Below the pieces are notes generated by a model that was given only the letters and a program-made list of their open reading frames with translations, did not search any database and was not told the DNA's origin. Shown here one piece after another: positions 32,608-43,996 of a DNA stretch of 64,000 nt. Position numbers and translations under genes: made by a program. Each line of letters starts with the position of its first letter. Positions within the stretch are counted from its first letter, which is position 1. Origin of the DNA: Rubripirellula sp. (GTDB lineage Bacteria > Planctomycetota > Planctomycetia > Pirellulales > Pirellulaceae); the NCBI GenBank assembly GCA_028823035.1, contig JAPKCI010000001.1:62001-126000 (forward strand), given 5' to 3'.

Positions 32608-34149
32608 ATGAAAATTAGAAATCCCGGAGCATGGGCTTCGACGAGCTTGGCAACAATCGCTGCCGCAGGTCTCCTTTCCGGAGCAGCGTGGGTCAATGCT
32701 GATCAGTCTCGAGAATCACCCTTGGGGAACCTGAGCCCTCAGCAGCAAGAGGCCATCGACTCGGCGTATCATCTATCCAGTGCGTTTCGCACTGTTGCTG
32801 AGGAATTGCTGCCTTCGGTGGTTTCGATTGAAAATCGACCGGCCGTTGCAGCAGCATGGAATTCAACTGGAAAGGCACAACCCTCACAGGATGGCATGCG
32901 GAACGAGAATCCTTTCAAAGGCACTCCCTTTGAAGATATGTTTCGGGGACGCGGTCCGAACATGAGCCCAGGACGTTCGGCCCCTGCACCCCAGGGTGGA
33001 ATTGGTTCTGGCGTCATCATTGATTCCTCAGGTGTCATCCTAACCAACAATCATGTGGTCGCTGGGGGCGGTGAAGTCACCGTACGCACGCATGATGGTC
33101 GCGAATTCGTAGCAACGAACGTTTGGACCGATCCCAAAACCGACCTTGCCGTGGTCAAGGTAGATGCAACCGAACTGGTCGCAGCGACGCTAGGCGACAG
33201 TGACCGCATTTCCATTGGCGATTGGGTGATGGCACTCGGACAGCCGTTCGGGCTGGAGAGTACAGTGACCGCTGGCATCATCAGTGCGAAACATCGTGGC
33301 ATTGGCATCACCGCCCGCGAGAACTTCCTGCAGACAGACGCGGCAATCAATCCGGGCAACAGCGGCGGCCCGTTGGTAAACCTTCGAGGTGAAGTGGTTG
33401 GTATCAATACCGCTATTCACTCACGCAGTGGTGGGAATGAAGGAATCGGCTTTGCCGTACCTTCCAACCTAGCTCGCTGGGTCGGCGATCAGCTGGTGAG
33501 CGGTGGATCGGTCAAGCGAGCCTACTTGGGGGTTGGCATCCAACCAGTAACTCCTGAGCTGGCAAAGGAACTGAGCGTCAAGCCTCGCGGCGGCGTGATT
33601 GTGACTGATGTCTATCCCGATACTCCTGCTGCAAAATCGGGTCTCGAATCGGGTGACGTCATTGTTCGCTTTGGCGAGAAAACGGTAACCACCCCTCAAG
33701 CGTTGCAACTCGCCGTGGAACGTTCACCGTTTGGCAAAGAGTTGATGATCGAGATCGTCCGCGGTGGCAAGGTGATGAAACTCGGCTACGAGGCTGAAAT
33801 GCAGCCGACCGATTTCGGAACTAAAACCAGCGAGGAAAAAGGCCGGACCGGGAAGCGGATGGAAGGCCTGGGGCTGGAAATCGCTCCTCTGGATAGTGCC
33901 GTCGCCAAACAGCTCGGAATGGAAGGCATCGAGGGTGTTGTGATTACCTCGGTACGAGAGCAAAGTCCAGCTGCGAAAGCGGGATTGGCCCCCGGAATCG
34001 TCATTCGGGAAGTTAATCGACAAAAAGTATCGTCGGTCGCAGATTTTGAACGGCTGATGGCCGAGCATCGCAAGGATGACTCGGCGGAAGGCATCCTCCT
34101 GTTGGTCCGTAGCGAGAAAGGATCACGATTCATCGTTTTGGATTCGTGA
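32608..34149 (+). CDS. HtrA/DegP-type serine protease with two PDZ domains
   Basis: A 513-residue exported or membrane-tethered protease for envelope protein quality control. It has a signal/anchor near residues 8-30 (GAWASTSLATIAAAGLLSGA), then a trypsin-like domain with the full triad: His149 (LTNNHVVAGG), Asp179 (DPKTDLAVVKVD) and Ser252 (NPGNSGGPLVN). PDZ1 spans about 295-385 (RAYLGVGIQPV ... GVIVTDVYPDTPAAKSGL) and PDZ2 about 410-510 (GVVITSVREQSPAAKAGL). The start has AGGA eight to eleven bases upstream. A strong terminator follows at 34193-34238. Confidence 0.96.
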   Translation: MKIRNPGAWASTSLATIAAAGLLSGAAWVNADQSRESPLGNLSPQQQEAIDSAYHLSSAFRTVAEELLPSVVSIENRPAVAAAWNSTGKAQPSQDGMRNENPFKGTPFEDMFRGRGPNMSPGRSAPAPQGGIGSGVIIDSSGVILTNNHVVAGGGEVTVRTHDGREFVATNVWTDPKTDLAVVKVDATELVAATLGDSDRISIGDWVMALGQPFGLESTVTAGIISAKHRGIGITARENFLQTDAAINPGNSGGPLVNLRGEVVGINTAIHSRSGGNEGIGFAVPSNLARWVGDQLVSGGSVKRAYLGVGIQPVTPELAKELSVKPRGGVIVTDVYPDTPAAKSGLESGDVIVRFGEKTVTTPQALQLAVERSPFGKELMIEIVRGGKVMKLGYEAEMQPTDFGTKTSEEKGRTGKRMEGLGLEIAPLDSAVAKQLGMEGIEGVVITSVREQSPAAKAGLAPGIVIREVNRQKVSSVADFERLMAEHRKDDSAEGILLLVRSEKGSRFIVLDS

Positions 34150-34192
34150 TAACGCTCCAGCCTCTGCCGCAAGGAGGCGACGGACCTACAAT

Positions 34193-34238
34193 GCGGTCAG
34201 CGTCGGTGTTCGCCACTCGACGCTGACCGCTCTTTTTA
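34193..34238 (+). terminator. Rho-independent terminator of htrA-like gene
   Basis: A perfect 13-base-pair stem (34193-34205 with 34218-34230, 12-base loop) is followed by tcttttta. It lies about 45 bases after the protease stop codon and about 90 before the histidine kinase start. Confidence 0.93.
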
Positions 34239-34329
34239 TAGGGCAGCTACAATATTGCCTGCAGGCAGTCTGAATTCGCAGTGGTAATTGCCTGCCATCC
34301 CGCTCTCAACAATCCTGAAAGACCAGTCG

Positions 34330-35829
34330 ATGCGACTTGCTGCCAAACTCGTCCTACTGTTTCTGACAGGTCTGTTGCTGGTTGTCGGGCTGTTCTCGTA
34401 CCTGACCATTCAGCAAGAACGGATGGCGCGGGCTGAGCATCAGCGTTTTGCCTCGGAATTGGTTGAGTCGCTGCAACCGACGATCGAGCGAGCGATTCGT
34501 GAAAATCGAGTCCCCGAAATACCCAAGCCTATGCAGGTATCATCGCGTTTGCGGCAGGTGACCATGCGATGGGTGGAAGTCACATCATCAAGCGACATCA
34601 ATCGCCAACCCTCACCGTTAAAGCTGATTATCGCTGAACGCGAAATCACCATGCTCAGTATGCCGGATCGGTCAGGCGAACAAGTCGTCTACACCTATGT
34701 TCCTTTCACCAGTCGTGGACCAGAGGGAACCAAGGCAGGCAAGATTGAGGTGGCAGTCCCCGATGCTGGTATGAATACACGCTTTCAACACTCGCTGCTG
34801 ACATCTTTGATCGCAATGGCGGGTGTCGCAACCCTGTCAGGGTTCGTCATTCTCGTTGGCGGGATCAAAATGGTGGGCAAACCACTCAACCAACTCATCG
34901 ACAAGGTCCACCGGGTCGGCGAAGGGGATTTCAGTGGCCCCGTGACAATCAAATCTGAAGATGAATTGGGACGCTTGGGTAAAGCCCTGAACGATATGTG
35001 TGATCAACTGGTTCAACAGCGTCATGAACTGGAGACAGCGACTGCCTCGAGAATCGAGACTGTCGAGCAACTGCGCCACGCAGAGCGATTGACCACGGTG
35101 GGAAGAATGGCCGCCGGTCTGGCGCATGAAATCGGCACGCCTCTGAATGTCGTGACCGGCCGAGCGGAATTGCTGGCCAGTGGCAAACTAGATGTCGAGA
35201 CGGCCCACAGCAGCGCAGTGGCCATTCAATCGGAAGCCCAACGAATCACCAAAATAGTCCGTGAACTACTCGATTTTGCTCGACAGAACACACCGCAAAG
35301 ATCCAACCAGAATCTCAATGAGCTCATCACCGTGACCGTCGATTTAATGGAAACCGTGGCAGCAAAGCACCACACCCACCTGCACGCGACACTTCCGCAA
35401 GAACCGTTGGTAGCCAACATCGATGCAAGCCAGATCCAGCAGGTCCTGACGAATTTGATCGTCAATGCGATCCAAACCGCCGGCAATGCTGGAAATGTCA
35501 CAATCACCCTCTGCGACAGTCACTGCAAACCACCTGGAAATGATGGTGCAGCAGCAGAAAAGTATCGACGAATCAGCATTACTGATGACGGAGAGGGAAT
35601 TTCCCCGAATGATCGGGCTCACATTTTCGAGCCCTTTTTCACGACCAAGGATGTCGGTGAAGGTACTGGTTTAGGATTATCGATCTCACACGGCATCATT
35701 CAGGAACATGGCGGCTGGATTGAAGTGGACACTACCGAAGGGAAGGGCAGCAAATTCTCGATTTACCTGCCTGCCAAGGACGACAGCAACCAACCGGACG
35801 GCAATGATCTCAGGGAGTTACGCTCATGA
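34330..35829 (+). CDS. Sensor histidine kinase (NtrB/ZraS-like)
   Basis: About 499 residues from the ATG at 34330, which begins directly at TM1 (LVLLFLTGLLLVVGLFSYLT); the frame is open from 34288. A periplasmic sensor of about 130 residues is followed by TM2 (about 155-178), a HAMP domain, a HisKA domain with the phospho-acceptor His266 in MAAGLAHEIGTPLNVV, and an HATPase domain with NLIVNAIQTA (N box), DDGEGISP (G1) and GEGTGLGLSIS (G2). Its stop overlaps the start of the response regulator (ATGA), so the pair is co-translated. The signal sensed is unknown. Confidence 0.95.
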   Translation: MRLAAKLVLLFLTGLLLVVGLFSYLTIQQERMARAEHQRFASELVESLQPTIERAIRENRVPEIPKPMQVSSRLRQVTMRWVEVTSSSDINRQPSPLKLIIAEREITMLSMPDRSGEQVVYTYVPFTSRGPEGTKAGKIEVAVPDAGMNTRFQHSLLTSLIAMAGVATLSGFVILVGGIKMVGKPLNQLIDKVHRVGEGDFSGPVTIKSEDELGRLGKALNDMCDQLVQQRHELETATASRIETVEQLRHAERLTTVGRMAAGLAHEIGTPLNVVTGRAELLASGKLDVETAHSSAVAIQSEAQRITKIVRELLDFARQNTPQRSNQNLNELITVTVDLMETVAAKHHTHLHATLPQEPLVANIDASQIQQVLTNLIVNAIQTAGNAGNVTITLCDSHCKPPGNDGAAAEKYRRISITDDGEGISPNDRAHIFEPFFTTKDVGEGTGLGLSISHGIIQEHGGWIEVDTTEGKGSKFSIYLPAKDDSNQPDGNDLRELRS

Positions 35830-37196
35830 AGGGCCAAGTACTGATTGTCGATGATGACAAGGCAATGTGCGAACTGATCGACACGTCCCTGACAATGAAA
35901 GGGTATGCAACCGTCTGGTGTCAGAGCGCCGCCGAGGCGAGTGAACTGATCCACAACACTGAATTTGATGTGGTGCTGACGGATGTAAAAATGCCGGGAA
36001 CGACTGGTCTTCAGCTCTGTCAACAAATCAGTTCCAGCCGTCCTGACATCCCCGTGGTCGTCATGACAGCTTTTGGGACGTTGGATACGGCCGTGGCCAC
36101 CATTCGCAGCGGAGCTTATGACTTTCTTACCAAACCGGTTGAACTGGAGGTCCTGTCACTGACCATTGCGCGTGCTGTTGAACGACGTCAATTGACGCGC
36201 CAAATCCACTTACTGGAACAGCAAACTCGCAACGAAAACCATTTTGGAGAACTGCTGGGCGAAAGCCTGCCCATGCAGCGGCTTTACGATCAGATGAAGC
36301 GAATTGGGCCGTCAGATGCCGCTCTGCTGATCACAGGTGAGAGTGGCACCGGTAAAGAACTGGTGGCACGGTCAATTCATCAACTCAGCAATCGTTCGCA
36401 CCACCCCTTCGTCGCAGTCAATTGTGCAGCTCTTTCAGAGACACTCTTGGAGAGTGAGCTTTTCGGGCATGTACGCGGAGCATTCACGGACGCCCGCAGT
36501 GAACGCAAAGGGCTGTTCCTTGAGGCTGAGGAAGGAACCTTGCTGCTGGACGAAATGGGCGACATGCCGAAGTCCATGCAGGTCAAGTTGCTTCGGGCGT
36601 TGGAAGAAAAACGAATTCGACCAGTCGGAAGTGATCAGGAAATCGAATTCAATGTGCGTGTCCTTGCCGCCACTCATCGAGATCTGGAAACCGCTGTCGA
36701 AGACGGTTTGTTCCGGCAGGATTTGTTCTACCGCATCAACGTCATCCAACTTCATCTTCCCCCTCTGCGATCGCGTGGTGTAGACATTCTTGCGATTGCG
36801 TCCCATTACATCGATCAGTTCGCCGAACGTTCGGGAAAAAAAGTCGCAGGAATTTCAGAGACAGCGGCAGAAAAATTACTTGCCTACTCATGGCCGGGTA
36901 ACGTTCGTGAATTACGGAACGTCATGGAACGGGCTCTGGCGCTGACCCGATATGACTCCATCACCATCGAGGATCTTCCGGACAAGATTCGTGATCATCA
37001 AGGTGGCACCGTATTCATCGGCGGCGAGGATCCCACGGAATTGGTTTCCCTCGAAGAAATCGAGCGGCGTTACATCGAACATGTACTCAAGGCAGTCGAT
37101 CAAAATCGAACTCAGGCTGCCCGAATCCTGGGGTTCGACCGCAAGACCCTCTACCGAAAACTCAAGTCCGATTCTGATCCTGACAGCACGACATGA
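35826..37196 (+). CDS. Sigma54-dependent response regulator (NtrC family)
   Basis: A 456-residue regulator: receiver domain (about 1-120) with acidic DDD near the N-terminus, phospho-acceptor Asp53 (VVLTDVKMPGTTG) and Lys in FLTKPVEL; an AAA+ domain (about 140-370) with Walker A GESGTGKELVA, Walker B GTLLLDEMGDMP and arginine-finger region; and a C-terminal Fis-type helix-turn-helix (QAARILGFDRKTLYRKL). The sigma54-contacting loop reads GAFTDA instead of GAFTGA, a variant I recall from other regulators. It should activate RpoN promoters on phosphorylation by the overlapping kinase. Confidence 0.95.
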   Translation: MKGQVLIVDDDKAMCELIDTSLTMKGYATVWCQSAAEASELIHNTEFDVVLTDVKMPGTTGLQLCQQISSSRPDIPVVVMTAFGTLDTAVATIRSGAYDFLTKPVELEVLSLTIARAVERRQLTRQIHLLEQQTRNENHFGELLGESLPMQRLYDQMKRIGPSDAALLITGESGTGKELVARSIHQLSNRSHHPFVAVNCAALSETLLESELFGHVRGAFTDARSERKGLFLEAEEGTLLLDEMGDMPKSMQVKLLRALEEKRIRPVGSDQEIEFNVRVLAATHRDLETAVEDGLFRQDLFYRINVIQLHLPPLRSRGVDILAIASHYIDQFAERSGKKVAGISETAAEKLLAYSWPGNVRELRNVMERALALTRYDSITIEDLPDKIRDHQGGTVFIGGEDPTELVSLEEIERRYIEHVLKAVDQNRTQAARILGFDRKTLYRKLKSDSDPDSTT

Positions 37197-37552: not shown

Positions 37553-40500
37553 CTAGTCCGTCAGCCAATCCTTGACAGCTTCAGCATCGGGCAAGTCGCA
37601 TTGCCTGAACTTGGCAATGCGTCCATCAGAATCGTCATACACCAGCATGGTCGCCGCCGAGAGGTCGGAAGCAAGCGGGGAATCGATCAACAGGGCTGAA
37701 TCGGACTGATTCATTTGGCCAAGGATTCGTATTTCGAGGTCATGCTGGGATGCCCTTGGCAGCCAGCGGGACACGGTTTCGACCGATCCAGCAACCAAGA
37801 CCACAAAGACATTTGCCGGCGGTCCATCTCGCAAAACAGACTGCAATGCTGCGCCGCCACCCTGCGGACCTGACGACGAATCGAGAGAGAAATTAAAGGA
37901 ATCATCCTGTCGCAAGTCACGGAATCTCTCCAAGGGATCGACAACCACGACGATTGGTGGGGCATCTGGGGCGTCGTCGCCTCGCTCACGGATCATCTCA
38001 CTCAAACGGTTCATTTCCGCTTCACCATCACGAATTTTGATTTTCCTTGTCCTGATACCAGCCTGCTCAAGCCATGGCATCAGGGACTCGTAATCATCCG
38101 TCCGCGCACCATCGAAATAGACGATTTCCAAACGCGGATCTGATTTCGCCATTCCGGAAAGACTCGAAGCAAGCAGCGCTTGACGCGAATCCTGACCCGT
38201 AATCAGCAGGATATTTCGACCCGGATCCCGCCCCAGTTTCAGTTGCTGGGGAGGTCCGATTTCAACCGATTCTCCCAATAGTCCCTGCAGCACGCCTCGT
38301 TTTTCACCGTCGATCACTGAATTCGCCATCGCAGGGGTCCAACGACAGGGTCGGTTCCCCTCAAACACTACCGGCGGTGTTAACTCTTGATGATATGACT
38401 CATCCCGATCGGCAATGGAAACCAGCATGTCACGGTGGTTTGCGGAAGACAGCCATGCCACTTGAAACGGCTGATTACCTTCCACGAGTCCACCCGCATC
38501 GTTGTAAATGGCTTCACCTGGACGACTGATTAGTCGGGCAGCTGTATTCTCGTCAGAAAGGATCAGCGCAGCATCTGAGTCACTGCATTGCATGGCGATG
38601 CGAACTGCCATCTGACCCAGCGTCGCACGGGGTAACGAATACGCGCCCGCAAGTGACTGACTGCTGAGAACAACGTGCATACCGAACGAACGACCCTGCC
38701 GCACCAGCCGATCCAGCAACATCGTACAATCGCCAGCCAAGCGGTCATCACGAACAAACAGTTCCTGAAATTCATCCACGACCAACATGATACGGGGCAT
38801 CGAATCGCCCGTACCTGTCAGGTACTCACCAAGTTCCTGCACTCCTGCAGCCCTGAACTTTTCGCCTCGCTGCTGCAGTTCTTCATCCAAACACTGCAAA
38901 ACACTACGACCAAATTCACGCTCACTTTCAATGCCGATCACACGGGCATGCGGCAAGCCATGCTCCGCATACGGTTTGAACTCAACACCCTTCTTGAAAT
39001 CTAGCAGGTAAAACTGCAACTGATCGGGTCGATAACGATAAGCACCCGAGGTGATGATCGAATGCAGTAGCGTACTTTTGCCGGAACCGGTTTTCCCGGC
39101 GATAAGCACATGCTGTTGCACTCCCTGCCCCAGATGGAGACAAAGTGAACGATTTGCGCCCTGACTGCCGATCGGGATCTCAATGTCTTTTCCCGTTTCG
39201 CCAGTGGCCTGTTCATAGTCGGTCAAAACATTGGGGAGTGGGATTTCGACGCTTGAGGCAGCGACGGCGGCAATCCCGATTTTCTGCACAAGATCGTCGC
39301 GCAGTGCTGCTGGCGGGGAAGCGGCCGGTGTGAATGGCAAGTTTTCCAATCCAGCAGATTTCAAATGCCACTCGCCATCCTCGTCAATGCTCAAACGAAT
39401 TATCTTTTCACTCTCCGGCAGCGGTGTTTCTGGTGGCCAAGGCTTGTCTCTGTCACACACCAGGATCGTGAAAATGCCGCATCGCAATCCACTTTCCAGT
39501 AGTGCTTGCAAATGCCGGTAACTCTCACGGGTCAGAGCGTCGGGAAATCCAACCGCAGCGACCGCCCTGTAGGGCTCCGCCATCGAACCGGCTACTTCGT
39601 TGTAATCTTCAATCCGCTCAAAACGATCGCGAAGGCTCGATTGCAAGACATCCTCAACGTGATCCGCAAGTTCGCTCACACGACTTTCGATCTTTGCATC
39701 AGTCGTCCAGACCCGATGTCCAACCAAACTAGGATCGTGATCCGCCAAGGCCATGAAACTGGTAAAGTTTTGCCCTCGCCCCGTTGGGTCAATCAGAGTC
39801 AGCTTGGCTTGAGCGGGTGGTGCCCCCGTAAGCAAACGCCACAGCACCTGATGCGCCAGATCGATCGCCTGTCCCATGTGTGTTTCGGAACACTCGATCA
39901 CAAGCCCGCTATGCAAGCGACGGTGCAAGACCACAGGCAACATTTGCGGTATTTGCACCTCTTCAAGCAACGCAGACATGCGTTCAGCGGACAATCCTTC
40001 TTGCGGACCGGTTCCATTGCTCTGCGTCGTTGCTGATTCCTGATCCGGAACAGAATTCAACATCTGGCGCAGACTGTCTTCAACTCGCAGCCATCCCAGA
40101 GGCAGGCAATCCATTCTGGAGGTATCGGCCCCCGTTGCCTGCAACACCTCGCTCCAATCGGGAAACCGCACCAACATTTGTTCTTGTGCAGATTTGATTC
40201 TTGCCAAACCTTGCGTCACGCCTTCTTTCAATCGGTTGGCAAGGTATCGCACTTCGCTTTGCCACTGCGCAGCCTGCTCGTCCCGCTGCTGCTGGATGCT
40301 CTGGTCTGCTTCCATTAACTCCTGTGAAATATTGTGGGCGACGACATCTGCTTTGGCACGCATTTCGTTACCTACACGATTTACTTTCTCCCCGTATTCA
40401 ACATCAGTTTTCTGAAGTGTTTCCGACAGACTCAGCCGTTTCTTTTCCTGTTCAACCTCGAGGCGTTGCTTCATCTCATCGGTCTGTTCTTTCTTCCATC

Positions 40501-41503
40501 GCTCAGCAGCTGCCAGATGTGCCTCGCGCCGCTCAACAAGTTCTTCAGAAGCAGCAGCGGCAATTTTGCTCGAGAAGTTCCTGCCGCTAGCCGCATACTC
40601 ATCCGCAGTGAGCCCGATCAACACTACCTGGGGATAGATTCGCCGCGTCATTCGCTTCAAAGGCCAGAGCAGCACCAGATAGGCTGTGATCCCGAGCAAG
40701 CCAGCCGGAATCGTCCCGCCTCCAATCCATATCCACTTCTCGGTAGGCGGGTAATCTTGCGTAATGAAGTAAGCAACGCTTGCCCAAACCACGACAAAAA
40801 GTGCCACAGCCGCCGGAAGGTAAAACGAGTCTACAATCTTGGACGCGGCACCCGAATGTAGTTCAACTCTCAGCTTCTCGCACTTCCTTGACAGACGTCC
40901 AATCGCTTCGACTGTATCCTTGACCGATTCAGGCTTTGATTCGCGGTGATCATTGATCCGTTCGTCAGAGGATGAAACATCCGGCAGTCCATCGAGTCGA
41001 CGTATCGTCAAATCCTTTACCAGTGCGATTTGCTCAGCGAGCGGCAGCAGAGCTTCATCGATCTGCTTGACTTCTTTGCGGTTCTGTTGACCGGGTTGGT
41101 TTTTGCGATTTTCGTATTGCTCCATGACCGCCTGACACCGCAACTGAACTTTCTGCTTGATCACTGCGAGGTCTTCGATCGCTTTTTGACGAAACGCCTG
41201 AGCCAGCCGATTGAGGTCCATGCGATTGCGAATCGCGGTTTCCTCGTAATGCCTTGTCAGTTTTTCCTCAGCTTCGTCCCACATCGCAAGCATTTCCCTG
41301 CGTTGCGTTCGACAAGCTTCCGTCGTGGCAGCACGACTGATCCCATACTCATGTTCTTTTTCACCCCGTTGCCTGGCGTGAACAACCTGCAACTCTGCTT
41401 GCTGCTTCGAACAATTTTGAAATCGCTTGGACAAACCGTCGAGAAGTTGCTGCTGGCGATGTGTATCAAGAAGCCCTGCGGGACTGACTGATGTGTCTTT
41501 CAT
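37553..41503 (-). CDS. FtsK/SpoIIIE-type ATPase, EccC-like (type VII secretion-like)
   Basis: A 1316-residue membrane ATPase. Residues 1-220 are mostly charged coiled coil; two membrane helices lie at about 227-247 and 258-280; a second coiled coil spans about 310-430. Three FtsK-like modules follow. The first (about 510-700) has no P-loop; the central one (about 780-1010) has Walker A GKTGSGKST (803-811) and Walker B MLVVDEFQELF (Asp910, Glu911), plus DFKKGVEFKPY and LVRQGRSFGMHVVLSSQSL; the third (about 1090-1300) shows a degenerate ITGQDSRQALLASS loop. The three-module order is that of EccC/YukB secretion motors rather than single-module DNA pumps. It follows a WXG100-like gene by 38 bases. 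Confidence 0.88.
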   Translation of the reverse strand: MKDTSVSPAGLLDTHRQQQLLDGLSKRFQNCSKQQAELQVVHARQRGEKEHEYGISRAATTEACRTQRREMLAMWDEAEEKLTRHYEETAIRNRMDLNRLAQAFRQKAIEDLAVIKQKVQLRCQAVMEQYENRKNQPGQQNRKEVKQIDEALLPLAEQIALVKDLTIRRLDGLPDVSSSDERINDHRESKPESVKDTVEAIGRLSRKCEKLRVELHSGAASKIVDSFYLPAAVALFVVVWASVAYFITQDYPPTEKWIWIGGGTIPAGLLGITAYLVLLWPLKRMTRRIYPQVVLIGLTADEYAASGRNFSSKIAAAASEELVERREAHLAAAERWKKEQTDEMKQRLEVEQEKKRLSLSETLQKTDVEYGEKVNRVGNEMRAKADVVAHNISQELMEADQSIQQQRDEQAAQWQSEVRYLANRLKEGVTQGLARIKSAQEQMLVRFPDWSEVLQATGADTSRMDCLPLGWLRVEDSLRQMLNSVPDQESATTQSNGTGPQEGLSAERMSALLEEVQIPQMLPVVLHRRLHSGLVIECSETHMGQAIDLAHQVLWRLLTGAPPAQAKLTLIDPTGRGQNFTSFMALADHDPSLVGHRVWTTDAKIESRVSELADHVEDVLQSSLRDRFERIEDYNEVAGSMAEPYRAVAAVGFPDALTRESYRHLQALLESGLRCGIFTILVCDRDKPWPPETPLPESEKIIRLSIDEDGEWHLKSAGLENLPFTPAASPPAALRDDLVQKIGIAAVAASSVEIPLPNVLTDYEQATGETGKDIEIPIGSQGANRSLCLHLGQGVQQHVLIAGKTGSGKSTLLHSIITSGAYRYRPDQLQFYLLDFKKGVEFKPYAEHGLPHARVIGIESEREFGRSVLQCLDEELQQRGEKFRAAGVQELGEYLTGTGDSMPRIMLVVDEFQELFVRDDRLAGDCTMLLDRLVRQGRSFGMHVVLSSQSLAGAYSLPRATLGQMAVRIAMQCSDSDAALILSDENTAARLISRPGEAIYNDAGGLVEGNQPFQVAWLSSANHRDMLVSIADRDESYHQELTPPVVFEGNRPCRWTPAMANSVIDGEKRGVLQGLLGESVEIGPPQQLKLGRDPGRNILLITGQDSRQALLASSLSGMAKSDPRLEIVYFDGARTDDYESLMPWLEQAGIRTRKIKIRDGEAEMNRLSEMIRERGDDAPDAPPIVVVVDPLERFRDLRQDDSFNFSLDSSSGPQGGGAALQSVLRDGPPANVFVVLVAGSVETVSRWLPRASQHDLEIRILGQMNQSDSALLIDSPLASDLSAATMLVYDDSDGRIAKFRQCDLPDAEAVKDWLTD

Positions 41504-41541
41504 GGTCGCGTAGAGGGGCGAGAGGAGAGAAGCGAACGTCT

Positions 41542-41799
41542 CTAGTTTAACCCGTCCGACACCGCGCGATCATCCTTCAATTCAATATCTGCCTTTCGAA
41601 CAGCATCACAGAATTCATGGAGTGTCCGAGAAAAACGACTCAGGCTGGGCCCAAGCGTGAAAAGATGTTCCTGCTCAAACTTCCGACACCGATCATCGAG
41701 CCAATCCTCACGAACATTGGCCCAAAGCCTCGCAAACTCCGTGAAATCACGCTGAATACGGGCTTCACCGTCCGCTACACGACCGAGATGAAATGACAT
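41542..41799 (-). CDS. WXG100-like small helical protein
   Basis: An 85-residue, nearly all-helical protein with an excellent GGAGG ribosome-binding site seven bases before the ATG. Two helices (about 8-30 and 40-72) are joined by EDWLDDRCRKFEQEHL. The spacing W33-x-D35-x5-F41 reproduces the W-x-G-x5-F pattern of WXG100/ESAT-6 proteins with Gly replaced by Asp, and size and helix layout fit. There is no signal peptide. Placed directly before an EccC-like ATPase, the natural partner of such substrates. The assignment is inferred from pattern and context; a generic helical adaptor is the alternative. Confidence 0.6.
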   Translation of the reverse strand: MSFHLGRVADGEARIQRDFTEFARLWANVREDWLDDRCRKFEQEHLFTLGPSLSRFSRTLHEFCDAVRKADIELKDDRAVSDGLN

Positions 41800-41823
41800 G
41801 CTGAACCTCCCTAATGGGGGATA

Positions 41824-43353
41824 TCAGGAATGGGAATTGAACGTTCGCAACATTTTTCTGCCTTTATATAGATTAAATAAATCATTAACCGAAAGGGGCC
41901 TCAAACGGCCAGAAATCGGATGATCAATGGTCTCCAGACTATCTGTGACCACGACGCATTCGGTGGTTTCCCGCAATGCGGTGAAAATTCCTGCCTGCTC
42001 GTCCAGGAAAATTCCCAACATCGCTGGCTTGATCGAGCGATAGCCAAGGTGTTCCAGATGCTTTGAAAACGACTCCATCACGCGAGACTGCGCGTCGTTA
42101 AACTGGTCTGCAGCAACCGTAAAAATCTCATCATGTTCGACATGCCAGCCAGCGTAGATGGCGTAGATATCATCGACTGGAAGATTGGCAACATCGGTTG
42201 ACATTGCAAAGCTGACCGGGCCTGTCATGCCAACATTACTGTAAGTCCGCTCACCCATGCTGTATTCAAAACGAACAAGGAAAACATCAACAAGATCATT
42301 AAAACTCGGCCATAACAAACGCCGGCAGTCAATGACTTCTACCGACGTGGGAGTCACCCCCATCTGCTGCGGTTGAGTCAGCCACAATGCCATTTCGGCT
42401 TCTGCTGTCGCGTGGTCGCCCCGATCATCCTCATTGACTAGATCACCGATACCAATCTCATCGGCATAGTAAATAGCGCGTAAGCGGGCTGCTGGTTCCG
42501 CTGTCAGATCCACCAACCTCTTCTTGCCACCTTCGTCTCCCAACTTGGCAAGCGCGCCCGCTGCTTCGCATTGAACTCGTCGGTGCCGAAGCTCGATAGT
42601 CTGATTCAGCTTGCCAATCGAGGTCGCATCACCAATCAAACCAACCGTATCGCAAAGTGACACCGCCAACGCCACAGCCTCACCCAAAGTTGCCTGAACC
42701 GTCTCGACATCATCGCCAAAAGACCTCGGGTTTTCCTCGAACAGACTTAACCTTCCGCTGACTTCACCCAACAAGTGATTCAACATTGGCAATCGATCTA
42801 TCGCAGGGTGGGTCTCTACACGGCCTTCCCGAAAAAGGTAATTTGCCAAGTCCAGGAGCGGGGAAGCCAGAGCAACATGCTGTAAAGCATCCAACAACGC
42901 CGGATAAACAGAGCCGACCGACCAGTCGGCATGCTGCATCAGCGGACTCAAGACCTGCGCGGCCTCCATCCATTGCTTGGGTGGTGACTCGTCCAGTAGC
43001 ATGACCAATCTGCACAAAGCATCGTCGCTGCGGATCATCGCCAATAGCTGCAACAGCAAATAGCGATTGGTCGTCTTGCTAGGCAAAGCTTCAGTGATCG
43101 CTTGAATTCGCTCTGGGTCTAGCTTGGCAAGGGCAGCAGGGCCTGACTTTAAAACGACTGTGTGAAGCACGCGAAGCATGCCGCCCAGAATGGCGGGATC
43201 GGAAGCCGACAATTCATCACAGTGACTTGCGATCTCGGCTACCAGAATGGCTCCCTGACCATCAGCTGCCTCTGCTAGCTGCCGCAATTGCCATCCGGCT
43301 GCAACAGGATCAGCCGACGGTCCGAGTAGTGGCTGGATTTTTTCTTCAAACAC
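41824..43353 (-). CDS. HEAT-like repeat protein in the FtsK/WXG-like operon
   Basis: A 509-residue protein starting at GTG. Residues about 1-310 are helical repeats (RYLLLQLLAMIRSDDALCRL, VQCEAAGALAKLGDEGGKKR), typical of HEAT/ARM scaffolds. The C-terminal third (about 330-509) changes character: VEVIDCRRLLWPSFNDLVDV, VRFEYSMGERTYSNVGMTGP and IKPAMLGIFLDEQAGIFTAL suggest a compact alpha/beta domain I do not recognise. No signal or membrane segment. Only 24 bases separate it from the WXG100-like gene, so it is part of the same operon and may be a chaperone or scaffold for that system; this is inference. Confidence 0.75.
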   Translation of the reverse strand: MFEEKIQPLLGPSADPVAAGWQLRQLAEAADGQGAILVAEIASHCDELSASDPAILGGMLRVLHTVVLKSGPAALAKLDPERIQAITEALPSKTTNRYLLLQLLAMIRSDDALCRLVMLLDESPPKQWMEAAQVLSPLMQHADWSVGSVYPALLDALQHVALASPLLDLANYLFREGRVETHPAIDRLPMLNHLLGEVSGRLSLFEENPRSFGDDVETVQATLGEAVALAVSLCDTVGLIGDATSIGKLNQTIELRHRRVQCEAAGALAKLGDEGGKKRLVDLTAEPAARLRAIYYADEIGIGDLVNEDDRGDHATAEAEMALWLTQPQQMGVTPTSVEVIDCRRLLWPSFNDLVDVFLVRFEYSMGERTYSNVGMTGPVSFAMSTDVANLPVDDIYAIYAGWHVEHDEIFTVAADQFNDAQSRVMESFSKHLEHLGYRSIKPAMLGIFLDEQAGIFTALRETTECVVVTDSLETIDHPISGRLRPLSVNDLFNLYKGRKMLRTFNSHS

Positions 43354-43432: not shown

Positions 43433-43996
43433 TCAGGACTCCATCGCCTGTTTCGCAGAACGCGACACTGTCACGCCGCAACGTCTCTCAACAATGGCAA
43501 GATGATGATGCAAATGCCCAGCGGCAAGCCATGCGATTGCGCGTACGGTAAAGCTAGAACCATTAGCCTCTGCCACATAATCCCATGATGCAGGAACGAT
43601 CCGCCGTAACAACAGCAGATTTGCCTGTCGCAGGAAACCAAATTCCGCAATCAAACCACTGAAATTACCGAGCCCAAAACGACTGTCGGCGTAAGCATTC
43701 TCATCCCAACCTGGTAAAGGCGTTTTGTCACCAGCAGCAATCCGTAGCATGCGATAACCAAATACCCGTTCCGCGTCGACACAATGTTCGAATACCTGAC
43801 GGACAGTCCATTCATACGGGGCGTGCACCTTGTCGATCTGCTCGGAACACAAATGGCTTGCCAACTCACAGGCCCAGTAGAGCTGATCCTCCAAAGCCAT
43901 CAAGGAACAATTGCCATCCAACTGATCTATCAGACCCTGCTGATATTCATTACCAACTTCAGTGGTTTTCGGGCGTCGGCTGGCAATTCTAGTCAT
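43433..43996 (-). CDS. DinB-like fold protein
   Basis: A 187-residue protein with the four-helix pattern of the DinB/YfiT superfamily. Three histidine ligands are likely: VRQVFEHCVDAERVFGYRML (first His) and the pair in GHLHHHLAIVE near the C-terminus, with the middle region NAYADSRFGLGNFSGLI typical of DinB_2 proteins. Family members bind a divalent metal and include thiol-dependent transferases; the reaction here is unknown. It lies 79 bases upstream of the HEAT-like gene on the same strand and may be the first gene of that operon or an independent gene. Confidence 0.85.
   Translation of the reverse strand: MTRIASRRPKTTEVGNEYQQGLIDQLDGNCSLMALEDQLYWACELASHLCSEQIDKVHAPYEWTVRQVFEHCVDAERVFGYRMLRIAAGDKTPLPGWDENAYADSRFGLGNFSGLIAEFGFLRQANLLLLRRIVPASWDYVAEANGSSFTVRAIAWLAAGHLHHHLAIVERRCGVTVSRSAKQAMES

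What the first reader, a model, noticed from the sequence alone, without database searches (positions are those of the whole stretch)
37553..43353. Candidate minimal type VII-like secretion module: HEAT-like protein, WXG100-like protein and EccC-like ATPase
Three same-strand genes separated by 24 and 38 bases encode a HEAT-like scaffold with an unrecognised C-terminal domain, an 85-residue WXG100-like helical hairpin and a 1316-residue three-module FtsK-type ATPase with its own two membrane helices and coiled coils. In known ESX systems the EccC-type motor recognises WXG100 substrates; here none of the usual membrane partners (EccB/D/E, EssB, YukD) is visible nearby. This could be a streamlined export system, or an ATPase complex with another task, specific to planctomycetes.
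Basis: partly seen in the sequence, partly recalled or inferred. Interest (0 to 1): 0.85.

Follow-up and report, generated by a model that had tools for sequence, protein, structure and literature searches.

The report
Split planctomycete type VII-like motor module
Two of the three reported genes (a membrane-anchored pumping enzyme and a small hairpin protein) are half of a four-gene set, related to type VII protein export, that other planctomycete bacteria keep as one operon but this bacterium keeps in two places; the kind is known from other bacteria, and I found no description of the planctomycete form.

Summary
The three genes exist as described. The reading is partly right. The ATPase is an EccC/EssC relative with two hydrophobic segments and one intact ATP site, in the middle of three modules; the 85-residue protein is predicted to fold as a WXG100 hairpin. 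But the trio is not the conserved unit: the HEAT gene stands beside them only in this genus and one near genome. The unit is four genes: a true WXG100 protein (PF06013), a long-hairpin protein (c5), the small protein and the ATPase. 40 of 80 fetched loci hold all four together; in this genome WXG100-c5 sits on another contig. WXG100, c5 and small genes occur in the same 46 of 60 relatives, the ATPase in 45 of them; of 294 planctomycetes 54 have the ATPase and all 54 a WXG100 match. A like set is in print for CoCoNuT-linked operons and in part for Helicobacter, so this is a membrane-anchored, stand-alone variant of a known kind. Most likely it exports or positions the hairpin proteins across the inner membrane: on one plasmid relative the gene in c5's place encodes a WHH nuclease beside a SUKH-type gene. 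Export itself is unproven.

The parts
37553..41503 (-). EccC/EssC-like FtsK-type ATPase, 1316 aa
40763..40819 (-). first hydrophobic (membrane) segment, residues 229-247
   Evidence: Kyte-Doolittle scan
40658..40714 (-). second hydrophobic segment, residues 264-282 (mean 1.68, just over the threshold of 1.6)
39248..39961 (-). first module, residues 515-752, no P-loop, FtsK fold only weakly supported
38354..39247 (-). middle, canonical FtsK module, residues 753-1050
39074..39097 (-). Walker A GKTGSGKS, residues 803-810, invariant in 30 of 30 sequences
38756..38776 (-). Walker B region DEFQELF, residues 910-916
37556..38296 (-). third, degenerate FtsK module, residues 1070-1316
41542..41799 (-). 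85-aa WXG100-like helical hairpin (WLD at residues 33-35, W and D invariant in 54 rows)
41824..43353 (-). HEAT-like protein, 509 aa; genus-level neighbour, not part of the conserved module

Best explanation
The ATPase and the 85-aa protein are two of four parts of a stand-alone type VII-like module. SHOWN by sequence: an EccC-like ATPase with hydrophobic segments and one intact ATP site; a WXG100 protein; a second, divergent protein predicted to be a WXG100-like hairpin; a protein predicted to be a very long two-helix hairpin (c5); co-occurrence of all four; one operon in many planctomycetes, two loci here. INFERRED: the three hairpin proteins bind one another as helical bundles and are presented to the ATPase, in the way that an LXG effector is brought to EssC by the WXG100-like factors Lap1 and Lap2; the ATPase, anchored in the inner membrane as a ring, uses ATP at the middle module to push c5 (with or without a C-terminal cargo domain) and its partners across that membrane. 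In most planctomycetes seen c5 has no recognised cargo domain, so there the product would be the hairpin assembly itself.
For: Nearest solved relatives of the ATPase: 4nh0 (E 5e-35, named FtsK/SpoIIIE; recalled as an actinobacterial EccC), EccC5 (2.9e-25), YukB (2.3e-19); best NCBIfam match EccCa, 108.5 bits, far below its cut-off of 509. At least one hydrophobic segment before the modules in 30 of 30 homologues, two separate ones in 26 by my reading of the scan. c7: 36 of 36 aligned rows (of 43 found) match PF06013, this genome's own at 40.2 bits. Small protein: the top three of the 7 chains aligned are WXG100 proteins, HP0062 (Z 8.9, rmsd 1.6, 81 aligned), EsxA (Z 7.8), CFP10/ESAT6 (Z 7.4). 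Co-occurrence: c7, c5 and small in the same 46 of 60 genomes, ATPase in 45 of these; across the phylum WXG100 matches in 54 of 54 genomes with the ATPase against 2 of 240 without. Operon: 36 of 54 keep c7 upstream of the ATPase on the same strand within 3.5 kb; 40 of 80 loci hold all four, and c5 and small overlap by 4 bases in 20 of 49 loci. Place of c5 in plasmid relatives: in Helicobacter pNHP190012_1 a 340-aa protein with a WHH nuclease domain (44.6 bits) next to a SMI1_KNR4 (SUKH) protein; in Rhodococcus a 314-aa protein with a weakly c5-like start (19.4 bits) and a further C-terminal part; in Caballeronia a 436-aa protein, coiled coil plus a part that I read by eye as D-ExK.
Against: No secretion data. 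EssB over cut-off 0 of 60; YukD in 8 of 60, of which 3 lack the module; I know of no T7SS that works with so few membrane parts. The YxxxD/E export arm is not conserved in the c7, c5 or small alignments (by eye; c5 row L062 alone was seen to have it), although a tyrosine near the C-terminus is invariant in c7 and in c5. The plasmid ATPases of Caballeronia and Deinococcus show no hydrophobic segment, those of Rhodococcus and Helicobacter one marginal one each, and the CoCoNuT relatives lack membrane helices, so the module type need not be a membrane exporter. One WXG100 over cut-off per relative: no expanded set of substrates. Kinship of the small family with WXG100 is weak by sequence: 1 of 54 rows matches PF06013, E 4e-4, hhalign 38.9%, Foldseek best E 3.3. 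The Helicobacter and Caballeronia proteins in c5's place do not match the c5 profiles convincingly, so their equivalence rests on gene order. The Deinococcus set has a 326-aa c5-like protein (17.4 bits) that looks coiled coil throughout and was not searched for domains.
Confidence: 0.55

Rival explanations
1. A cytosolic or membrane-bound conflict (defence) module that does not export: the ATPase ring and the hairpin proteins sense or gate, and where c5 carries a nuclease it acts inside the cell.
For: Relatives sit inside CoCoNuT/TerY-P operons and their ATPases lack membrane helices (passages of PMC11090510); Caballeronia has VWA, CARF, PP2C and kinase genes around the set.
Against: Planctomycete copies carry hydrophobic segments, are mostly single copy and mostly have no recognised nuclease part. 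The authors of PMC11090510 themselves favour secretion.
Confidence: 0.21
2. A planctomycete role in the cell envelope: the motor places the long hairpin proteins as structural parts at or across the inner membrane, without release.
For: Mostly single copy and present in many families; c5 mostly without a recognised cargo domain; long coiled coils of the ATPase.
Against: Not found in 14 of 60 close and 240 of 294 sampled planctomycetes (the second search scored two candidates per genome), so not essential to the phylum.
Confidence: 0.15
3. A DNA translocase of the FtsK/SpoIIIE kind, with the small proteins as accessory factors.
For: FtsK_SpoIIIE domain.
Against: Closest to T7SS motors; the DNA translocase FtsK model gives only 28 bits; no FtsK gamma domain among the matches; tied to WXG100 proteins.
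Confidence: 0.05

Closest known systems
CoCoNuT-associated WXG100/EssC-like module (PMC11090510, passages read)
   Same: EssC-like ATPase with three modules of which only the middle is intact; long N-terminal coiled coil; two WXG100-type proteins, one with and one without the motif; a coiled-coil protein, there fused to a D-ExK nuclease.
   Different: In the window none of the neighbours searched is a VWA, Ser/Thr kinase, CARF or McrBC gene (neighbours in other loci were not searched by domain); ATPase has hydrophobic segments; c5 mostly without a nuclease; split in two loci in this genus.
Helicobacter pylori HP0062/HP0066 'WXG100 secretion system' (PMC4978471 and PMC3397514, passages)
   Same: WXG100-like protein with WRD motif clustered with an FtsK-type ATPase gene; a nuclease of the HNH/ENDO VII superfamily listed with the FtsK gene.
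   Different: No second small protein named in the passages read; a Helicobacter plasmid relative of the ATPase has 823 aa against 1316 here.
Solo WXG with distinct YueA-like ATPase, 'mobile versions of T7SS' (PMC3482391, table footnote, passage)
   Same: This ATPase type, with planctomycetes named.
   Different: Called mobile; here mostly single copy per genome. Two further genes (c5, small) belong to the set.
T7SSb of Bacillota with LXG effectors and Lap1/Lap2 (PMC9600955, abstract and outline; PMC11217815, passages)
   Same: EssC-like motor; WXG100-type small proteins; by analogy a long helical effector N-terminus.
   Different: No EssB or YukD match in this genome; no FHA domain matched on the ATPase; no LXG match among 39 c5 proteins.
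T7SSa (ESX)
   Same: EccC-like motor with two hydrophobic segments; two WXG100-type proteins.
   Different: Only the middle module is intact; no EccB match (search without a ringing control).

Membership tests
WXG100 (PF06013): the window's 85-aa protein | Pfam match over the curated cut-off | tested here: not met
   no family for the window protein; 1 of 54 homologues matches, E 4e-4
WXG100 (PF06013): the window's 85-aa protein | helical hairpin of about 100 residues with W-x-G or a like motif at the bend | tested here: met
   hairpin model, WLD with W and D invariant, top fold rows HP0062, EsxA, CFP10/ESAT6; a predicted, not solved, fold
WXG100 (PF06013): c7, encoded elsewhere in this genome | Pfam match over the curated cut-off | tested here: met
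   40.2 bits against 27.3
Type VII secretion system (a or b) | EccC/EssC ATPase related to FtsK, with two membrane segments | tested here: met
   but the NCBIfam cut-offs for EccC and EssC are not reached
Type VII secretion system (a or b) | EssB and YukD (type b) | tested here: not met
   EssB 0 of 60 over cut-off, YukD 0 of 22 in this genus; the B. subtilis control rang for both
Type VII secretion system (a or b) | EccB (type a) | tested here: inconclusive
   0 of 60, but no control rang
Type VII secretion system (a or b) | EccD membrane part, EccE, EssA, EsaA, mycosin | not tested
   no search made
Type VII secretion system (a or b) | conserved YxxxD/E export arm on a substrate | tested here: not met
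   by eye on alignments A2-A4: not conserved (c5 row L062, seen, has it); only the tyrosine is invariant in c7 and c5
Type VII secretion system (a or b) | ATP-dependent export of WXG100 proteins | not testable with these tools
   needs a secretion assay
WXG100/EssC-like module of PMC11090510 and PMC3482391 | three ATPase modules with only the middle one intact | tested here: met
   (the first module's fold is only weakly supported)
WXG100/EssC-like module of PMC11090510 and PMC3482391 | two WXG100-type proteins plus a coiled-coil protein | tested here: met
WXG100/EssC-like module of PMC11090510 and PMC3482391 | coiled-coil protein fused to a nuclease | tested here: not met
   no nuclease domain matched in this genome's 163-aa c5; among 9 long c5 proteins of other loci only L136 looks D-ExK-like, by eye
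LXG effector | Pfam LXG match of c5 | tested here: not met
   no LXG among the families listed for 39 c5 members

The most novel reading that the evidence does not exclude
A type VII-like exporter of two-membrane bacteria in which the EccC-like motor alone forms the inner-membrane passage, with no other dedicated membrane subunit, and whose main product in planctomycetes is not a toxin but an assembly of helical hairpins.
Probability: 0.35. Interest if true: 0.75.

Novelty: new variant of a known kind. Interest (0 to 1): 0.55.

Why it matters
T7SS are described for Actinomycetota and Bacillota, where EccC/EssC and EsxA are the only parts common to types a and b (PMC11217815, passages). This module holds relatives of just those two plus two further hairpin proteins, in a phylum whose members have two membranes (recalled), and was found in 54 of 294 evenly drawn planctomycete genomes. 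If it exports, it shows how little the type VII motor needs, and culturable planctomycetes would be a simple test system. Genomes that have broken the operon but kept all four genes are good evidence that the four work together.

Tried and rejected
HEAT protein as part of the machine: rejected, beside the ATPase in only 12 of 35 fetched loci, all of the genus or G034, and presence not associated with the module. Small protein fused to the ATPase in Rhodopirellula-type loci with long ATPases (L084, L087, L096): checked, no fusion. In L084, L087, L096, L097, L127 and L137 no small gene was found beside the ATPase although 1.9 kb or more of upstream DNA is held; L097 seems to be the contig of G044 (same length), whose small gene lies on another contig; the other five were not followed. 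Second WXG100-like hit in this genome (C150, below cut-off): by its sequence a GGDEF-type protein, chance coiled coil. PADLOC hits on the ATPase (SspH, mad8, HerA, and weakly ZorA on the coils) I take as generic. YukD in 8 of 60 genomes: 3 of the 8 lack the module, so not part of it. c5 fold search: only long-helix proteins, Foldseek best E 0.02, best Z 11.2, nothing specific. Solved-structure search with the small-family profile: first row a spike coiled coil (3e-4), EsxA next (0.0012), so weak. End of L136: no match in Pfam, NCBIfam or solved structures. Paper searches; the FtsK-HerA paper of 2004 is not held, and Anantharaman 2012 was seen only as a citation.

Counts and rows dropped: the tally is 46 of 60; I do not count G032 (24% identity over residues 46-397), and G013 lacks the ATPase where its small gene stands about 200 bases from a contig end. 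With the single window sequence the small gene is found in 35 of 60; the 46 come from a profile, and the profiles A2 and A4 hold rows from some of the same genomes. Of the 54 phylum genomes with the ATPase, 50 WXG100 matches are over the cut-off; one of the other four (G287) is in a 503-aa frame and may not be the true gene. The two extra WXG100 genomes (G080, G249) are below the cut-off in long frames. The 80 named loci are the best of 515. Gene positions come from my own longest-ORF picks, so some starts are too early and the start order in L141, L143 and L154 is disturbed. Of 66 small, 49 c5 and 43 c7 rows in those loci I aligned 53, 39 and 36. The HMMs were iterated and merged c7 with the small family; I do not use that merging as evidence. 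The middle of the output was cut and not seen; its E-values are for a set of 28 proteins, so I give bits. Only 4 of 530 plasmid records with a match were opened.

Full report
OBSERVATION. The three genes are present at the stated places on the minus strand, with gaps of 24 and 38 bases. A DinB-type gene (43433-43996) ends 79 bases before the HEAT gene; beyond the ATPase the next gene is convergent (35826-37196). The window lies in G000 contig C484; the nearest named relatives of the ATPase are from Rhodopirellula, Rubripirellula and other Planctomycetaceae.

THE ATPASE. Residues 776-951 match FtsK_SpoIIIE at 97.5 bits. The nearest solved sequences are 4nh0 (named FtsK/SpoIIIE; recalled as an actinobacterial EccC), EccC5 and YukB. 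NCBIfam gives EccCa 108.5 bits, well below its cut-off, so it is a relative, not a standard EccC. Across 30 homologues the P-loop GKTGSGKS of the middle module is invariant. The third module aligns to the middle one with hhalign probability 96.8%; the first has no P-loop, 0.9% to the middle and 91% to the third. At least one hydrophobic segment precedes the modules in 30 of 30; I count two separate ones in 26 and one in L024, L035, L037 and L044.

THE SMALL PROTEIN. No Pfam match. In a 54-row alignment W33 and D35 are invariant. AlphaFold2 predicts a hairpin (mean pLDDT 89.5). Foldseek gave 6 matches, none better than E 3.3. Of the 7 chains aligned by VIA the top three are HP0062, EsxA and CFP10/ESAT6 (Z 8.9, 7.8, 7.4); such Z values are common for helical proteins, so the weight lies in all three being WXG100 proteins. 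Sequence evidence of kinship is weak: hhalign with c7 13% and 39%, EsxA at E 0.0012 below a spike coiled coil.

THE REAL UNIT. In distant genera the ATPase gene follows three genes in one direction: c7 (about 90 aa), c5 (about 160-390 aa), small, ATPase. c7 is a true WXG100 protein (36 of 36 rows; nearest solved relative HP0062, E 3.9e-11). c5 is predicted as two long antiparallel helices, residues 10-77 and 87-164, mean pLDDT 91. Of 80 named loci (the best of 515), 40 hold all four, 6 lack c7, 17 hold small + ATPase, 14 the ATPase alone, and 3 hold c7, c5 and small with no ATPase frame found; a number are cut by contig ends. c5 and small overlap by 4 bases in 20 of 49.

TWO LOCI HERE. In the window's genus the HEAT gene stands upstream of the small gene (22 of 22 genomes, and G034), and c7-c5 lie elsewhere: in G000 on contig C219 (L056, 9810-10576). 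A TPR-protein gene stands just upstream of c7 in 15 of the 17 loci that hold both c7 and c5 (not L068 and L069); its profile found nothing in the loci L021-L055 and L076-L155. An ATPase tree puts the window's genus, G034, G027 and G031, all with c7 away from the ATPase, in one clade (99/99) on a long branch, though the place of the long row G031 is unsure; G036, also dispersed, falls with G025, which is intact (99/96), so the operon seems to have broken more than once. On descent the tree says little: only two families have more than one row, f7 (together, 100/100) and f1 (two clades, one origin not excluded).

CO-OCCURRENCE. c7, c5 and small are found in the same 46 of 60 relatives; the ATPase in 45 of these, the exception being near a contig end in G013. 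The HEAT gene is in 49 of 60, including 9 of the 14 without the module. In 294 planctomycetes 54 have the ATPase; 54 of 54 have a WXG100 match, against 2 of 240 without (Fisher 3e-57); over the curated cut-off 50 of 54 against 0 of 240. Relatedness of the genomes is not corrected for, and the ATPase search scored two candidates per genome. 36 of 54 keep c7 upstream within 3.5 kb on the same strand. Co-retention where the operon is broken argues for joint function rather than mere linkage.

RELATIVES ELSEWHERE. Four plasmid loci were opened. Caballeronia: VWA, WXG100 (79 bits to the c7 profile), 436 aa, 113 aa, 76 aa, ATPase 927 aa, CARF, VWA, PP2C, kinase. Helicobacter sp.: WXG100 (51 bits), 340 aa with WHH nuclease, SMI1_KNR4 protein, 77 aa, ATPase 823 aa. 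Rhodococcus: ATPase 1322 aa, 314 aa with c5-like start (19.4 bits), 73 aa, WXG100 87 aa (44 bits). Deinococcus: ATPase 947 aa, 88 aa (28 bits to c7), 94 aa, 326 aa (17.4 bits to c5), 144 aa (19.7 bits to small). The 76- and 77-aa proteins match the small family poorly (E 0.58 and 0.04), so their equivalence rests on place and size; the same holds for the 340- and 436-aa proteins and c5. In the named loci 4 of 9 long c5 proteins have an Imm33-like C-terminus (L100, L103, L125, L133); L136, from a MAG labelled Thermoflexales, ends in a stretch that looks D-ExK-like by eye.

PRINT. A 2012 table footnote lists solo WXG with a three-module ATPase, only the middle active, for planctomycetes and other groups, as mobile T7SS (PMC3482391, passages). 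A 2016 paper calls WxG and FtsK a minimal T7SS set and names HP0062 and HP0066 of H. pylori as paralogues (PMC4978471, passages). A 2024 paper describes the four-part set with CoCoNuTs (PMC11090510, passages). My searches for planctomycetes with WXG100, T7SS or ESAT-6 listed no paper on the planctomycete system; the library holds only open-licence papers.

MECHANISM. See Best explanation. The analogy with Lap1, Lap2 and LXG rests on the abstract of PMC9600955. Export is inferred from kinship, hydrophobic segments and the nuclease-bearing protein in c5's place in relatives.

VERDICT. New variant of a known kind: the WXG100-ATPase core in planctomycetes was known from a footnote and the four-part set from other bacteria; the four-gene planctomycete form and its split state I did not find in print.

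Noticed in passing
L056:8890-9768 (G000 contig C219): TPR-protein gene just upstream of the WXG100 gene in 15 of 17 loci with c7 and c5 (genus, G034, G027); a possible chaperone.
   Followed up: partly
L133:3675-4736, L100:3044-4222, L103:3119-4222, L125:3852-4832: Imm33-like domain (PF24719) at the end of c5, over its cut-off in 4 of 9 long c5 proteins.
   Followed up: partly
L136:716-1894: c5 with a hydrophobic stretch and a C-terminal part that looks like a D-ExK nuclease by eye; no database match.
   Followed up: partly
L159:6111-6539: Deinococcus plasmid: a 142-aa protein with one hydrophobic segment at its end stands just before an ATPase without any, as if the anchor were a separate gene.
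   Followed up: no
window 43433-43996: DinB-type gene (PF12867) 79 bases upstream of the HEAT gene; a gene of similar size (cluster c4, not tested for DinB) stands upstream in 10 of 11 genus loci.
   Followed up: no
G032:C1:553972-555012: 354-aa frame matching only part of the N-terminal coiled region of the ATPase (24% identity) in a genome without the module.
   Followed up: no
window 32608-37196: HtrA-like protease with PDZ domains, then a histidine kinase and a sigma-54 response regulator, all on the plus strand.
   Followed up: no
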